This document shows positions 984 to 8,445 of a stretch of 64,000 bases of DNA, in pieces. The DNA lies in assembly GCA_028285415.1 (NCBI GenBank), contig JANQPF010000009.1:124001-188000 (forward strand), read 5' to 3'. Under the pieces are notes generated by a model. The model was not told where the DNA came from and made no database searches. It worked only from the letters and a program-made list of their open reading frames with translations. Positions within the stretch are counted from its first letter, which is position 1; each line of letters opens with the position of its first letter. Position numbers and translations under genes: made by a program. The DNA comes from Pseudomonadales bacterium. Lineage in GTDB: Bacteria; Pseudomonadota; Gammaproteobacteria; Pseudomonadales; Azotimanducaceae.

Positions 984-2048
984 ATGAAAATACTCCGTAC
1001 GCCTGACGAACGCTTTGCCCATCTGGCGGATTACCCATTCACCCCCAACTACACCAACATCACAACGGACGACGGCAGTGAGCTGCGTATCCATCACCTC
1101 GACGAAGGCCCGGCGGACGGCCCGTTGGTCCTGTGCATGCATGGCCAACCGGTGTGGAGCTATCTGTATCGGAAGGTGATTCCTCACCTGACCGCAGCCG
1201 GGATGCGGGTCATCGCTCCTGACCTGGTCGGCTATGGTAAATCGGATAAACCGGCCGCCCGGGAAGACTACAGCTACGAACGTCAGGTCCAGTGGATGGG
1301 CGCGTGGCTCGAAGCAAACGATTTCAGCGGCATCACGTTCTTCGGCCAGGACTGGGGCGGGCTGGTTGGCCTGCGTCTGGTGGTGAACCACGCGGCGCGC
1401 TTCGAGCGCGTGGTCATTTCCAACACCGGCCTGCCTTACAACCCCGACGTGCCGCAGGCCGTCGTCACGGAAGTCGAGAACTTCCGCGCCAACGCACCAA
1501 CGCCCAGCCTGATCGAAATGCAGCAAGCGCTCAGCAGTATGGATGGCGGCAATCCGGCCAAAAAATTCGCTTACTGGCAGAAGTGGTGCTGGGAAACCGA
1601 AGACCTGCCCATCGGCTTCATCATGTCCATGATGCTCGAGCCACCCGGGCGGGCGCTGCAGGCATTCAAATTTCTGCTGAACAAGGTAGGCGTCACGTCA
1701 CCGCTGCCCACGCCGCTCGCCAGAGCCTACGACGCGCCATTCCCGGACCCAAGCTACAAGATGGGACCTCGCGCAATGCCAAGCCAGGTGCCGACACTGC
1801 CAACCTCACCGTCCCTCGAAGCGCAGCGCCAGGCCTGGGCGTTCTTCGAAACGTTCGATAAGCCGTTCCTGTGCGCCTTTGCCGACAACGATCCGGTGAC
1901 ACGCGGGGGTGAAGCTGAGTTCAGGGAGAAAGTCCCCGGCACCCGCGGTCTGCCGCACACCACCATCAAAGGTGGCGGGCACTTCGTCCAGGAGAACGCT
2001 CCGGAGCAGGTAGCACAGGTCATCATCGAACTGATTCAGTCGACATGA
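984..2048 (+). CDS. haloalkane dehalogenase-like alpha/beta hydrolase (HLD-I type)
   Basis: A 354-residue alpha/beta hydrolase. It would hydrolyse a carbon-halogen bond to an alcohol through an aspartyl-ester intermediate in the cytoplasm. Visible: oxyanion motif H53-G54-Q55-P56, nucleophile elbow GQDWGG with Asp123 followed by halide-binding Trp124, an acid in ADNDP (Asp301 or Asp303) and catalytic His333 in GHFVQE. Overall order and the AYDAPFPDPSYK stretch match subfamily I (DhlA-like). It is about 45 residues longer than DhlA, and HGQP replaces the usual HGEP or HGNP, so substrate range or even dehalogenase activity is uncertain; an epoxide- or fluoroacetate-type hydrolase is less likely. 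It has its own palindromic upstream site and converges on a sulfatase 12 bases away. Confidence 0.85.
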   Translation: MKILRTPDERFAHLADYPFTPNYTNITTDDGSELRIHHLDEGPADGPLVLCMHGQPVWSYLYRKVIPHLTAAGMRVIAPDLVGYGKSDKPAAREDYSYERQVQWMGAWLEANDFSGITFFGQDWGGLVGLRLVVNHAARFERVVISNTGLPYNPDVPQAVVTEVENFRANAPTPSLIEMQQALSSMDGGNPAKKFAYWQKWCWETEDLPIGFIMSMMLEPPGRALQAFKFLLNKVGVTSPLPTPLARAYDAPFPDPSYKMGPRAMPSQVPTLPTSPSLEAQRQAWAFFETFDKPFLCAFADNDPVTRGGEAEFREKVPGTRGLPHTTIKGGGHFVQENAPEQVAQVIIELIQST

Positions 2049-4523: not shown

Positions 4524-5732
4524 ATGGTCCGTCTGAGCGACTTACCCGAATACGAGCGCGAACACCTGATCGGCAAGGCAATGCCGCCGCTCCGCCCACC
4601 CGCCTGGACGCCGCGCGAAAAGCCCGTCGATGAGATGCGGGTTGCGCTCATCACCACCGCGGGGCTGCACTTTCGCAACGCTCCCGCGTTCAGCTTTACC
4701 GATGCCGGCTTTCGCCCGATTCCCTCCGAAGCCGATGCCAATGACCTCATCATGTCGCACAGCTCGGTCAACTTCGACCGCAGCGGGTTTACCGAGGACG
4801 TCAACCTCGTGTTTCCCATTGAGCGATTCAGAGAGCTCGAGACAGCAGGTCGGATCGGCAGCCTCGCGAGCATCCACTACAGCTTCATGGGCGCGGGCCT
4901 TCTGCCCGAGTCCTACGAAGACTCTGCCGGCCAGGTTGCGGGTCTCCTCAAAAAAGACAACGTTGATGCGGTATTCCTCACCCCCGTCTGACCCAACTGC
5001 ACCCGCGCCGTGTGCGCACTGGGTTACTTCCTGGAGCAGGCCGGTCTCATGACTACCGGCATCAGCCTGGTTCGTGAAAACGCCGCGAGCCTCGAGCCGC
5101 CGCGAACGTTATGGGTTTCGTTTCCGCTCGGACGTCCGCTTGGGGTGCCGAACGATGCCAGCTTCCAGCATCGCGTCATCAGTGCGGCCCTGGATCTTCT
5201 CGATCATGCTGAGGGCCCGGTATTGGCGGACTACCCGGAGGACGCGCCCCGGGTGGATACCGACGCTTCCCCCGCCTGCCCGGTATCGTTCGGTACGGAC
5301 GCCACCACCTGGCAAGTGCGTCTGAGCGCGGAACTCGCCAACCTCAGTCCCTGGTACCAGATTGGCCGGGACCGACGCGGCGGCAGAACCATGGTCGGAG
5401 TGTCGGCATCGAGTACCGAGGAGATCATCGAACGCATGGCCGCCGACCTGGATGCCGAGACGCTGCCTGACAATCTGAGCTGGTTCAAAGCGGCCATCGA
5501 GGACGTCAAAGCCTACTACGTGGAAGCGCTGACGGCGCAACCTGGCGCGTACGACCCGCAAGAGACATACAACACCCTGTGGCACGAGACCGAGCTCGGC
5601 GCCGCGCTTCGCTGGTTTTACGATCGATTCAGCGCACACCCACAGCTCTCCGGATTTGCACGCATTGTGCTGCCGCGCGACGCAACTGAGGGATTCAACC
5701 CCTCTGGCACCACCGAGGACACCTCCCTATGA
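4524..5732 (+). CDS. GrdB/PrdB-like reductase, selenoprotein (Sec at in-frame TGA)
   Basis: Read as one 402-residue protein with TGA 4989-4991 decoded as selenocysteine 156. Before the TGA the protein ends DAVFLTPV; after it the same frame continues PNCTRAVCALG, giving a U156-P-N-C159 redox motif followed by the helix FLEQAGLMTTGISLVREN. In the clostridial glycine/sarcosine/betaine reductase subunit B and D-proline reductase PrdB, Sec sits at this point in a UxxC motif after a DAV..L..T/V strand. A hairpin follows the TGA at once (4991-5024). Conservation continues to residue 402. A stop here would split an otherwise intact gene. Its ATGA overlap with the next gene implies coupled translation. 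Substrate is unknown; a Stickland-type role does not fit an aerobe. Confidence 0.85.
4991..5024 (+). promoter_or_regulatory. candidate bacterial SECIS hairpin
   Basis: Immediately 3' of the TGA, outer arms ACCCA (4991-4995) and TGGGT (5020-5024) pair perfectly. Inside, GCAC (4999-5002) pairs with GTGC (5012-5015), leaving a nine-base apical loop CCGCGCCGT about 12-20 bases after the TGA. Position and loop size match SelB-recognised elements inside bacterial selenoprotein genes; the internal loop is asymmetric. Fold checked by eye only. Confidence 0.6.
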
Positions 5733-6583
5733 ACGTCAAGCCAATAACCGCAAAGTTTGTCGCCGAGATCGAAGACATCGACGTGCGCAGCATCAGCGGG
5801 GATGAGTTCAACGAGCTCCATCGAGCCTGGCTCGAGTACGGCGTGCTGCGGTTGCGCAATCAGCCGCTCGACGAAGACGAGTTGCAGACATTCAGCGCAA
5901 ATTTCGGTCCGCTCGAGGAGATACCGCTCGGGCGCCTGCCCGAGGTCGTGCGCCGTAAAATCAAGAACCGTTTCGTCACCCAGCTCTCCAACATTGTCGT
6001 GGATGGCAAACCCATCGGCGGCCTGGGCAACGCAGAGGCCTCCTGGCATTCGGACATGACCTACGTGGAGACACCTCCGCCTGCCTCCGTGCTGCTGGGC
6101 GTGGAAATACCGGAAACGGGCGGTGACACTTACTTTGCCGACCAGAACGCCGCCTACGAGGCTCTGCCTGACGATCTGCGCGCGCGAGTCGCTGGGCTGA
6201 CGATCAAACACGACGCCGCGCACACCAGCATCGGCAGTCTGCGACCCGGCTTTGAGCCTTTTGACGACCCGCGGGAAGCGCCGGGCGCCGTGCATCCGAT
6301 TGTGATCACGCACCCCGAAACCGGGCAGAAAACCCTCTATCTCGGGCGGCGCGAATGGGCTTACGTGCCGGGCATGACGTTGGCGGACAGCGAGGCGCTG
6401 CTCGATGCGCTCTGGGCATACGCGGCACGCCCGGAGAACGTGTGGCGCCAGGTCTGGCAGCCTGGCGATCTCATCATCTGGGACAATCGGCGCGTGCTGC
6501 ACCGCCGCGACGATTTCGACCAGAACGCGCGACGCCTGATGAAGCGCTGCCAGGTGCTCAGCAGAGAAGCCATTACCGGCTGA
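5729..6583 (+). CDS. TauD/TfdA family Fe(II)/2-oxoglutarate dioxygenase
   Basis: A 284-residue cytoplasmic dioxygenase that would hydroxylate a substrate using O2 and 2-oxoglutarate. The facial triad is visible as H107 and D109 (WHSDMTY) and H258 (VLHRRDDF), with 2-oxoglutarate-binding Arg in NARRLMKR (R269/R273). Other family blocks are GGDTYFADQNAAYEALP and the N-terminal GVLRLRNQPL. Its ATG overlaps the stop of the selenoprotein gene (ATGA), so the two are probably translationally coupled and share a pathway. Substrate cannot be read from the sequence; taurine, 2,4-D-like and betaine-like acids are all handled by relatives. Confidence 0.92.
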   Translation: MNVKPITAKFVAEIEDIDVRSISGDEFNELHRAWLEYGVLRLRNQPLDEDELQTFSANFGPLEEIPLGRLPEVVRRKIKNRFVTQLSNIVVDGKPIGGLGNAEASWHSDMTYVETPPPASVLLGVEIPETGGDTYFADQNAAYEALPDDLRARVAGLTIKHDAAHTSIGSLRPGFEPFDDPREAPGAVHPIVITHPETGQKTLYLGRREWAYVPGMTLADSEALLDALWAYAARPENVWRQVWQPGDLIIWDNRRVLHRRDDFDQNARRLMKRCQVLSREAITG

Positions 6584-6682: not shown

Positions 6683-7537
6683 ATGGCTGAACCCGCAACG
6701 ATCGACGAGTCACCCTTCCCGCTGCTGCATCTGACACCCTGCATTGGCACAGAGGTGCATGGAATCGATCTGGCCCAGGACCTCGATCAAGCCGTCATCG
6801 ACTATCTGTCGAACCTGCTCGTTGAGCGCAAAGTCATTTTCTTTCGCGGCCAGCAGATCTCCAGAGAGGCACACATTGCCTTCGCCGCACGATTCGGCGA
6901 GTTGGAGGTTCATCCGTTCACAGCGAACAACGATGAGCACCCCGAGATCATTCACTTGAACAACGATGAAGCGCACCCGCCCTACATCAACATCTGGCAC
7001 TCCGACGTGACCTGGCGGGCGGAGCCCTCCCTGGGATCAATACTACGCGCCAGGGTCGTGCCGGAAGTCGGCGGGGATACGCTCTTTGCGAACATGGAAG
7101 CGGCATATGACGCGCTCGACGAAGCAACCAGGGAGGCCATCGACGGCCTCGAAGCGGTGCATGACAACGAAAGTTTTCTCAACGGCATGAGGGCAAACGG
7201 CGCGAGCGAGGAGGCAGTTGCGGCGAAACGCGCTGAATTTCCTCCCGCCACGCATCCGGTTGTGCGCACGCATCCCGTCAGCGGCCGCAAATCCCTGTAC
7301 GTCAATCGCGCTTTCACCCGCCGCATCGTCGGCATGGACACCGAGGCGTCGGACACGCTCCTGAACAAGCTCTACCTGCAAGCGTGGATTCCCGACTACC
7401 AGTGCCGGTTCCGCTGGCAGCCGGACAGCTTCGCGTTCTGGGACAACCGGGCGGCGCAACACTATGCCGCTGCAGACTACTGGCCGCACCGTCGAGAGAT
7501 GGAGCGCGTGACCATCATCGGGGATCGTCCACGCTGA
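6683..7537 (+). CDS. second TauD/TfdA family dioxygenase
   Basis: A 284-residue Fe(II)/2-oxoglutarate dioxygenase, only distantly similar to the one before it. Triad: H106 and D108 in WHSDVTW, H260 in DNRAAQHYAAADY, with 2-oxoglutarate Arg in RREMER (R271/R275). RKVIFFRGQQIS and GGDTLFANMEAAYDAL are family blocks, and the C-terminal half is closer to true TauD than the upstream paralogue. It has a good ribosome site (GAGGGGAAcc before ATG) and sits 99 bases downstream of the first dioxygenase, so the two may act in series or on related substrates. No sulfonate transporter is adjacent, so taurine is only one possibility. Confidence 0.92.
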   Translation: MAEPATIDESPFPLLHLTPCIGTEVHGIDLAQDLDQAVIDYLSNLLVERKVIFFRGQQISREAHIAFAARFGELEVHPFTANNDEHPEIIHLNNDEAHPPYINIWHSDVTWRAEPSLGSILRARVVPEVGGDTLFANMEAAYDALDEATREAIDGLEAVHDNESFLNGMRANGASEEAVAAKRAEFPPATHPVVRTHPVSGRKSLYVNRAFTRRIVGMDTEASDTLLNKLYLQAWIPDYQCRFRWQPDSFAFWDNRAAQHYAAADYWPHRREMERVTIIGDRPR

Positions 7538-7623: not shown

Positions 7624-8445
7624 ATGCCTACACAAGCCGACAAGTGCCGCCAGTTCGCGGCACTGCACACGCAACCCGAAGCGTTCATCATTGCCAATCC
7701 CTGGGACGTCGGCTCCGCGCTGCTGCTGCAGGGTCTCGGCTTCAAGGCGCTTGCGACCACCAGCGGCGGCTTTGCCTACACGCTCGGCAAACAGGACGGC
7801 GAACCCACGCTCGAAGAGAAGCTCGAGCACTGCCGGGCCATTGCGGAGGCAACCAATGTCCCGCTGAGCGCCGACTTCGAAGACGGCTTCGCCGATGATG
7901 CCGACGGTGTCGCCGCAAACGTCGCAGCGCTCATTGAGACAGGTGCGGCGGGCTGTTCCATTGAAGACTTCGACCGCTCCGGCAAATCGCTCTATGAACT
8001 GCCGGCTGCCGTGGACCGCCTTTCCGCCGCGATTGAGGCAGCACGTAGGCAAGACTTTCCATTTGTCATTACCGCACGCGCCGAGCATCTTCTGCGCGCG
8101 GGCCGCGATCTGGACGAGGTCATTACTCGTCTCAAGGCGTTCGAGGCAGCCGGTGCGGATGTGGTCTATGCGCCGGGTATCGCCTCTCTCGATGATCTGC
8201 GCATCGTTACGCATGCGCTGGAAAAACCGTTCAACATGCTCGGCGTGAGGATACCGGACGCCACCCTGGCGGATTTCCAGGAGGCGGGTGCACAAAGGGT
8301 CAGCATCGGTGGCGCGCTGACCTACGCTGCTGCAAAACCCATCATCGACTTCGGCGAAGCGATGCTGAATGAAGGTTCGTTCACCTGGACCGCTCAGATG
8401 GCGTCGGGCAAGCGCATTGGCGAGCTCTTCGCCGCCGGGGAGTAA
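7624..8445 (+). CDS. isocitrate lyase/PEP phosphonomutase family enzyme
   Basis: A 273-residue TIM-barrel enzyme. The family pattern is clear: NPWDVGSALLLQGLGFKALATTS at the start, LSADFEDGFAD (metal-binding acidic loop, about residues 79-89) and CSIEDFD. Members cleave or form C-C or C-P bonds next to a carboxylate (oxaloacetate decarboxylase, 2-methylisocitrate lyase, phosphonopyruvate hydrolase). The KKCGH loop of true isocitrate lyase is absent, so a small 2-oxo-acid lyase or hydrolase is more likely. It lies 86 bases after the second dioxygenase and is followed after one base by a GNAT enzyme. Confidence 0.85.
   Translation: MPTQADKCRQFAALHTQPEAFIIANPWDVGSALLLQGLGFKALATTSGGFAYTLGKQDGEPTLEEKLEHCRAIAEATNVPLSADFEDGFADDADGVAANVAALIETGAAGCSIEDFDRSGKSLYELPAAVDRLSAAIEAARRQDFPFVITARAEHLLRAGRDLDEVITRLKAFEAAGADVVYAPGIASLDDLRIVTHALEKPFNMLGVRIPDATLADFQEAGAQRVSIGGALTYAAAKPIIDFGEAMLNEGSFTWTAQMASGKRIGELFAAGE

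What the first reader, a model, noticed from the sequence alone, without database searches (positions are those of the whole stretch)
4524..5732. Split GrdB/PrdB-like gene is best read as a selenoprotein with an in-frame TGA
Two same-frame segments separated only by TGA 4989-4991 join into one family-length protein. The TGA falls exactly where clostridial GrdB and PrdB carry selenocysteine, giving UPNC (Sec156, Cys159). Automatic annotation would call two hypothetical fragments. Established: the family uses UxxC. Inferred: this cell has Sec machinery (selA, selB, selC, selD), which is not in this window.
Basis: partly seen in the sequence, partly recalled or inferred. Interest (0 to 1): 0.85.

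Follow-up and report, generated by a model that had tools for sequence, protein, structure and literature searches.

The report
Selenoprotein reductase paired with a dioxygenase
A gene that looks broken by a stop signal is very probably a selenium-containing enzyme, one of six related ones in this bacterium, and it sits in a conserved pair with an oxygen-using enzyme, which hints at an undescribed two-step chemistry.

Summary
In detail: window 4524-5732 is one frame interrupted only by TGA 4989-4991. The selenocysteine reading is strongly supported. The genome has selA, selB, selC and selD; five paralogues also carry one TGA at the matching codon; TGA stands there in 41 of 41 loci checked (40 distinct genes); 15 of 17 homologues from a phylum-wide sample carry Cys there; and a SECIS-like hairpin follows (88% of pairs formed against 60% in synonymous shuffles, 0 of 1000 as high).

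(2) Its clade is tied to a TauD-family Fe(II)/2-oxoglutarate dioxygenase directly downstream: 18 of 22 other neighbourhoods, 24 of 27 close TauD homologues, one genome with both in a single frame.

The wider family was reported as abundant marine "PrdB" (PMC1088965, PMC2398784); I saw no mention of the dioxygenase link. Substrate unknown; the chemistry (selenolate cleavage of a C-X bond coupled to oxidation) is inference. Verdict: real selenoprotein, new variant of a known kind.

The parts
4524..5732 (+). PrdB-like selenoprotein gene (402 aa with Sec156; stop TGA 5730-5732)
   Evidence: one frame, TIGR04483 PrdB 7.1e-36 over residues 22-227; PF07355 2.7e-8; full-length orthologues 54-75% identical with TGA at the same codon
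4989..4991 (+). in-frame UGA codon read as selenocysteine (UPNC, Sec156/Cys159)
   Evidence: TGA in 41 of 41 loci; TGC/TGT in 15 of 17 further homologues
5003..5019 (+). SECIS-like upper stem-loop, loop with GU at 5010-5011
   Evidence: Family evidence: 88% paired vs 60% synonymous null, GU 39 of 39. In the window's own sequence 4 of the 6 pairs form and the lone MFE fold differs
5205..5729 (+). C-terminal extension (residues 228-402), mostly helical in the model, no family found
   Evidence: no consistent family; model m99315ddff004, helices between 263 and 389 (mean pLDDT 71); no PDB fold match at E 0.001
5729..6583 (+). TauD-family Fe(II)/2-oxoglutarate dioxygenase, overlaps the selenoprotein stop by 4 bases (ATGA)
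   Evidence: PF02668 7.7e-65; H107, D109 and H258 invariant among 19 aligned rows, window included, up to three gapped rows allowed; conserved neighbour

Best explanation
A genuine selenoprotein. SelB delivers Sec-tRNA to UGA 4989-4991, helped by the hairpin just downstream, giving a 402-residue PrdB-like protein with a Sec156-Cys159 pair. It is the first gene of a tight two-gene unit whose second gene is a TauD-family Fe(II)/2-oxoglutarate dioxygenase (shown: gene order, spacing, co-occurrence, one fused frame; not shown: co-transcription). Most likely chemistry (inferred, about 0.35 on its own): the dioxygenase oxidises a small organic substrate with O2 and 2-oxoglutarate, and the selenoprotein cleaves a carbon-heteroatom bond next to a carbonyl with its selenolate, Cys159 then releasing the product, as in PrdB and GrdB. 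The carbonyl made by the oxygenase would replace the pyruvoyl Schiff base that PrdA/GrdE supply in anaerobes. The stated confidence is for selenoprotein plus functional pairing, not for the substrate or the order of steps.
For: Sec: selA, selB, selC, selD (SelD keeps CGGCGAK); six family members in the genome, each with one TGA at the aligned codon; TGA in 41 of 41 loci and in 20 of 20 further loci (L119 is the same gene as L063); Cys at the same place in 15 of 17 others; hairpin beyond coding constraint; Cys homologues lose it (66% paired; GU loop in 1 of 15, read by eye); selB and family members co-occur, 69 of 83 carriers against 8 of 63 non-carriers. Pairing: TauD directly downstream in 18 of 22 other neighbourhoods; 24 of 27 TauD homologues of 64% identity or more lie beside it (from coordinates; own genome included); gap -14 to 32 nt in 17 of 19 measured (L081 gave no start, L082 -143 from a partial match); one 696-aa fused frame, L055.
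Against: No protein or activity data. Three of 27 relatives' copies carry further stops (G006, G027, G033). 14 of 83 carrier genomes lack a detected selB; G009, G029, G031, G055, G057, G079 and G080 of these are listed at 90% or more complete. Four of 22 neighbourhoods have no TauD homologue beside the gene (L066, L083, L084, L085), nor does L088, a 48% relative outside the clade with room for one (L089 and L090 end too soon to tell). In G035, G055 and G090 the TauD homologue is not adjacent. The fusion is one MAG and could be a base or assembly error. The window's own lone minimum-energy fold is not the consensus hairpin. The SelD's best NCBIfam score is to TIGR04369 'fusion_not_SelD' (454 bits, below its cut-off of 700), though it passes selD TIGR00476 (268 against 125). 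The absence of a pyruvoyl partner had no positive control.
Confidence: 0.85

Rival explanations
1. Pseudogene or sequencing error: the TGA is a nonsense mutation or base-call error and the downstream half is decaying.
For: Standard ORF calling gives two fragments; three of 27 relatives' copies have further stops.
Against: TGA at the same codon in 41 of 41 loci, including SAR116 and Chloroflexota records; both halves under constraint; Cys homologues; sel genes present.
Confidence: 0.01
2. A true D-proline (or glycine/betaine) reductase subunit, as the marine metagenome papers named the family.
For: Best NCBIfam match is PrdB, 7.1e-36; UxxC motif.
Against: 123.8 bits against the equivalog cut-off of 300; extra C-terminal domain; no PrdA/GrdE-like gene recognised by eye among the gene clusters shared by four or more of 23 loci (not searched there by profile); no PF09338 match in the genome (no positive control rang); the partner belongs to an O2-dependent family (recalled).
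Confidence: 0.04
3. The selenoprotein is a general thiol-redox protein (peroxide or disulfide reductase) that protects or reactivates the dioxygenase, for instance by keeping its iron reduced.
For: UxxC resembles thioredoxin-type motifs (recalled); TauD-type enzymes can lose activity by iron oxidation (recalled); gene pair and fused frame.
Against: No thioredoxin family among its matches; relatives act on substrates (D-proline ring cleavage, PMC13188914; proposed C-F cleavage, PMC10838667; passages); the UPLD sister clade lacks the resolving Cys, odd for a disulfide reductase; in the sister long clade no neighbour family is shared by more than 4 of 12 loci.
Confidence: 0.2
4. The two genes merely share a regulated catabolic cassette and act on different steps of a pathway without touching the same intermediate.
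For: A TetR-type regulator gene is near the pair in 10 of 23 loci (3 of the 10 tested, two over the Pfam cut-off and one just below); acyl-CoA enzymes and hydrolases nearby in 4 loci (recognised by eye).
Against: Flanking genes change while the pair stays; one fused frame.
Confidence: 0.3

Closest known systems
PrdB, selenoprotein subunit of D-proline reductase (TIGR04483)
   Same: Homologous over residues 22-227; UxxC motif as listed for PrdB in PMC13188914 (passages)
   Different: 123.8 bits against a cut-off of 300; 175 extra C-terminal residues; no PrdA-type neighbour recognised; dioxygenase partner
GrdB/GrdF/GrdH, selenoprotein B of glycine, sarcosine and betaine reductase (PF07355, TIGR01918)
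   Same: PF07355 above its cut-off (34 against 22 bits); UxxC
   Different: Below the NCBIfam subfamily cut-off (42.7 against 65.45); matches only the C-terminal half of the GrdB-type models; no GrdE-type (PF09338) match in the genome, without a positive control; GrdA was not searched
Marine 'proline reductase PrdB' selenoproteins of the Sargasso Sea and GOS surveys (PMC1088965: 42; PMC2398784: 235 Sec and 110 Cys)
   Same: Probably the same broad family (inferred; their sequences were not compared): marine, UxxC, with Cys homologues
   Different: Named there by homology; the passages I saw give no operon partner, no subfamilies and no fusion for PrdB; PMC2398784 holds neither 'dioxygenase', 'PrdA' nor 'operon' in its main text
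FarB, GrdB-like selenoprotein for monofluoroacetate in Synergistota (PMC10838667)
   Same: A GrdB-family Sec proposed to attack a carbon-heteroatom bond outside amino-acid reduction (passages)
   Different: Anaerobe, comes with a GrdE-like partner (FarE), an antiporter and a radical-SAM protein; no dioxygenase in the operon
TauD/TfdA/RdpA Fe(II)/2-oxoglutarate dioxygenases
   Same: The partner gene is one: PF02668 7.7e-65, HxD...H kept; best PDB match 6d1o, 1.9e-36
   Different: Below the taurine dioxygenase cut-off (159.6 against 313); about equally far from taurine, 2,4-D and phenoxypropionate enzymes (122-129 bits), so the substrate is open

Membership tests
Bacterial selenoprotein | In-frame UGA conserved, with Cys in homologues | tested here: met
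   41 of 41 TGA; 15 of 17 Cys
Bacterial selenoprotein | SECIS hairpin just downstream of the UGA | tested here: met
   for the family; the window itself forms 4 of 6 upper pairs and its lone MFE differs
Bacterial selenoprotein | selA, selB, selC, selD in the genome | tested here: met
Bacterial selenoprotein | Sec found in the protein | not testable with these tools
   Needs mass spectrometry or 75Se labelling
PF07355 (GRDB) | Score over the curated cut-off | tested here: met
   34 against 22 bits, residues 80-153
PrdB equivalog TIGR04483 | Score over 300 bits | tested here: not met
   123.8 bits
PrdB / GrdB enzyme complexes | Pyruvoyl partner (PrdA/GrdE, PF09338) | tested here: inconclusive
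   No match in the genome or in 369 genomes of the class, but no control rang
GrdB-type subfamily TIGR01918 | Score over 65.45 bits | tested here: not met
   42.7 bits
TauD/TfdA dioxygenase (partner gene) | PF02668 over cut-off and HxD...H iron ligands | tested here: met
   219.9 against 27 bits; H107, D109, H258 invariant
Taurine dioxygenase equivalog NF007104 (partner gene) | Score over 313 bits | tested here: not met
   159.6 bits

The most novel reading that the evidence does not exclude
The pair is a dedicated oxygenase-selenoenzyme system: a dioxygenase builds the electron sink that anaerobic relatives take from a pyruvoyl cofactor, and the selenoprotein then breaks a carbon-heteroatom bond. 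That would put Stickland-type selenolate chemistry into aerobic catabolism, and explain at least part of the abundant marine 'PrdB' selenoproteins whose function is only inferred by homology.
Probability: 0.3. Interest if true: 0.78.

Novelty: new variant of a known kind. Interest (0 to 1): 0.52.

Why it matters
Marine surveys count 'proline reductase PrdB' among the most abundant selenoprotein families (PMC1088965, PMC2398784; passages), yet the name rests on homology to an enzyme of anaerobes. Here the family splits into clades with different active-site motifs. One clade is tied to a TauD-family dioxygenase, which makes the function testable with two purified proteins. One genome holds six such genes, each of which a standard gene caller would cut in two.

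Tried and rejected
Pseudogene and sequencing error: rejected. Membership of the PrdB equivalog and the GrdB subfamily: rejected by score. Rfam at gathering score found nothing in the window. Sequence search of the PDB with the selenoprotein: nothing at E 0.01. AlphaFold2 from 7 sequences: mean pLDDT 71; Foldseek against PDB gave nothing at 0.001 (best 0.010, photocobilins), so no fold claim is made. Pfam at E up to 1 on the seven A1 proteins: beyond GRDB only scattered hits, FUSC in 2 of 7. A crude codon-score scan for other genes with an in-frame TGA flagged only 1 of the 6 known family genes (the one in L029), so its other hits are not used. Conserved neighbours of the sister long clade: none in more than 4 of 12 loci.

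Choices and rows dropped before counts. Neighbourhoods: 20 of the relatives' orthologue loci with most contig around them were fetched, plus L085 and L087; L086 (same contig as G025) was left out; L088-L090 are outside the clade and told apart. TauD co-occurrence: the cut at 64% identity was set by me after seeing the list; four homologues at 51-53% (G045, G046, G070, G078) were set aside; selenoprotein orthologues were taken at 54% or more, G005 counted from two fragments. Hairpin test: L086 left out and L049 dropped for an N, so 39 of 40. Tree: L086 and the partial L060-L062 left out; L063 and L119, one gene, both in; treekit warns of long branches for L006, L008, L009, L010. UPLD loci were picked by frame length and identity.

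Papers: PMC1088965, PMC2398784, PMC13188914, PMC9312934, PMC1794560, PMC9402790 and PMC10838667 were seen as search listings and found passages only; no paper was read whole. The searches that showed no selenoprotein-dioxygenase pair are listings, partly capped: 15 of 1,275 shown; 10 of 18; 12 of 14; 2 of 2; 10 of 21. Three further searches were for background.

Full report
OBSERVATION. Window 4524-5729 is one frame with a single internal TGA at 4989-4991 and a TGA stop at 5730-5732. Read through, it gives 402 residues with UPNC at 156-159. PF07355 (GRDB) matches residues 80-153 at 2.7e-8; the match ends at profile position 345 of 347, just before the Sec. The best NCBIfam match is PrdB, TIGR04483, 7.1e-36 over residues 22-227, but 123.8 bits against a cut-off of 300. 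Residues 228-402 match no family consistently. So this is a PrdB-like core with an extra C-terminal part, not a family-length GrdB or PrdB.

SELENOCYSTEINE MACHINERY. The genome (G000, 5.97 Mb, 34 contigs, 99% complete, 3.19% contamination) has tRNA-Sec with anticodon TCA (73.6 bits), selB (408.8 bits) and selA (523.7 bits) side by side on contig C4, which also holds citrate synthase and succinate dehydrogenase genes. Contig C4 is short (14,452 bases); its G+C of 0.591 is near the window's 0.605. SelD is fused to an oxidoreductase domain and keeps CGGCGAK, like the Ndh-SelD fusions with CxxC described for marine bacteria in PMC2398784 (passages). It passes the selD model (268 against 125 bits); its top score is to TIGR04369 'fusion_not_SelD' but below that cut-off (454 against 700).

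FAMILY EVIDENCE. The genome holds six family members, each with one in-frame TGA at the aligned codon: UPNC (window), UPLC, UPLD and three UPVC. Of 146 genomes (own included), 83 have members. Of the 27 relatives' orthologous rows listed first there, 24 have only the one TGA; G006, G027 and G033 have further stops. At the aligned codon 41 of 41 loci carry TGA, including SAR116 and Chloroflexota records; these are 40 distinct genes. A further 20 of 20 loci do (one repeats L063). In an even draw of 398 genomes of the phylum, 16 have matches, own included; of the 17 homologues there outside the own genome, 15 carry TGC or TGT and 2 TGA. This Sec/Cys exchange at one codon is the classical sign of a selenoprotein (recalled). 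69 of 83 carriers have selB against 8 of 63 non-carriers (Fisher p 2e-18; relatedness not corrected). Within family f1 alone it is 68 of 82 against 3 of 9 (p 0.003). The 14 carriers without a detected selB are partly incomplete genomes, but seven are listed at 90% complete or more.

SECIS. A stem-loop lies at bases 15-31 counted from the U of UGA, with a loop holding GU. In 39 of 40 sequences, 88% of pair cells form, against 60% (sd 2.3) in 1000 synonymous-codon shuffles, none as high; mean fold energy is -11.7 against -8.5 (sd 0.4, 100 shuffles). The outermost pair (15-31) forms in under half. Sliding the partner by 1-3 bases gives 14.5-69%. The lower stem pairs in 77% of orthologue cells but only 52% in the other clades. 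GU stands in the loop in 39 of 39, though a conserved Val codon also fixes it. Cys homologues have 66% pairing and GU in 1 of 15 (read by eye), against 100% and 2 of 2 for the Sec rows in the same call. Their mean fold energy is not weaker (-14.2), so it is the hairpin at that place that is lost, not folding in general. In the window itself 4 of 6 upper pairs form and the lone fold differs.

PARTNER. The next gene (5729-6583) overlaps the stop by four bases and is a TauD-family dioxygenase (PF02668, 7.7e-65) with HxD at 107-109 and H258 kept in orthologues. A close homologue lies directly downstream in 18 of 22 other neighbourhoods; L066, L083, L084 and L085 lack it, and so does L088, a 48% relative outside the clade. 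From coordinates, 24 of 27 TauD homologues of 64% identity or more (own included) sit beside the selenoprotein; those of G035, G055 and G090 do not. 25 of 146 genomes have both, 2 only the TauD and 4 only the selenoprotein (Fisher p 8e-22, relatedness not corrected, cut-offs chosen after seeing the lists). The gap is -14 to 32 nt in 17 of 19 measured. In G030 both form one 696-residue frame (L055) matching both families. In G033 the TauD itself appears frame-shifted (two overlapping pieces). A TetR-type regulator gene is nearby in 10 of 23 loci (3 checked, 2 over cut-off). The sister long clade shows no neighbour shared by more than 4 of 12 loci.

TREE. In a tree of 74 rows the UPNC group (27 rows) is one clade (100/99), and so is UPLD (10 rows, 100/100). 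Cys rows fall among the short UPVC forms. Several rows are long branches, so deep order is unsure.

MECHANISM. Shown: gene order, motif, conservation, machinery. Inferred: Sec translation in the cell; selenolate attack as in PrdB/GrdB; Cys159 as resolving thiol; the dioxygenase making or using the same compound. Without a detected pyruvoyl partner the carbonyl would have to come from the substrate, possibly made by the dioxygenase; the partner's absence is not proven. The nearest solved dioxygenases act on phenoxypropionate, 2,4-D and taurine with similar scores, so the substrate cannot be named.

PRIOR KNOWLEDGE. PMC1088965 reports 42 Sec-type PrdB genes in the Sargasso Sea and PMC2398784 235 Sec and 110 Cys forms in GOS (passages). 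The fusions named in the passages of PMC2398784 and PMC9402790 do not include PrdB. Five searches, partly capped listings, showed no selenoprotein-dioxygenase pair; the library lacks most subscription journals.

ORGANISM. Unnamed.

Noticed in passing
L007 (G000:C15:269529-270164) and L108-L116: A sister clade keeps Sec but has Asp in place of the resolving Cys (UPLDHQ) in 10 of 10 members read, so this chemistry may not need the UxxC pair.
   Followed up: partly
L055 (G030:C231:4325-6412): Selenoprotein and TauD dioxygenase run as one 696-residue frame; a single MAG, so a base error is possible.
   Followed up: partly
L033 (G000:C21:106114-107010): SelD is fused to an oxidoreductase domain with a CxxC active site, the Ndh-SelD form.
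   Followed up: partly
L103 and L104: CaiB-type CoA-transferase genes lie near two short family members, one Cys and one Sec.
   Followed up: no
L030 8516-10974: One UPVC paralogue is followed, with an overlap of 4 bases, by an M81 metallopeptidase (MlrC-type) gene.
   Followed up: no
window 6683-7537: A second, different TauD-family gene follows the pair, nearer to taurine dioxygenase (281.8 bits against a cut-off of 313), then a PEP mutase-type gene at 7624-8445.
   Followed up: no
window 984-2048: Haloalkane dehalogenase-type hydrolase (NF002043, 394.1 bits against 265), with close homologues near the pair in L067 and L070.
   Followed up: no
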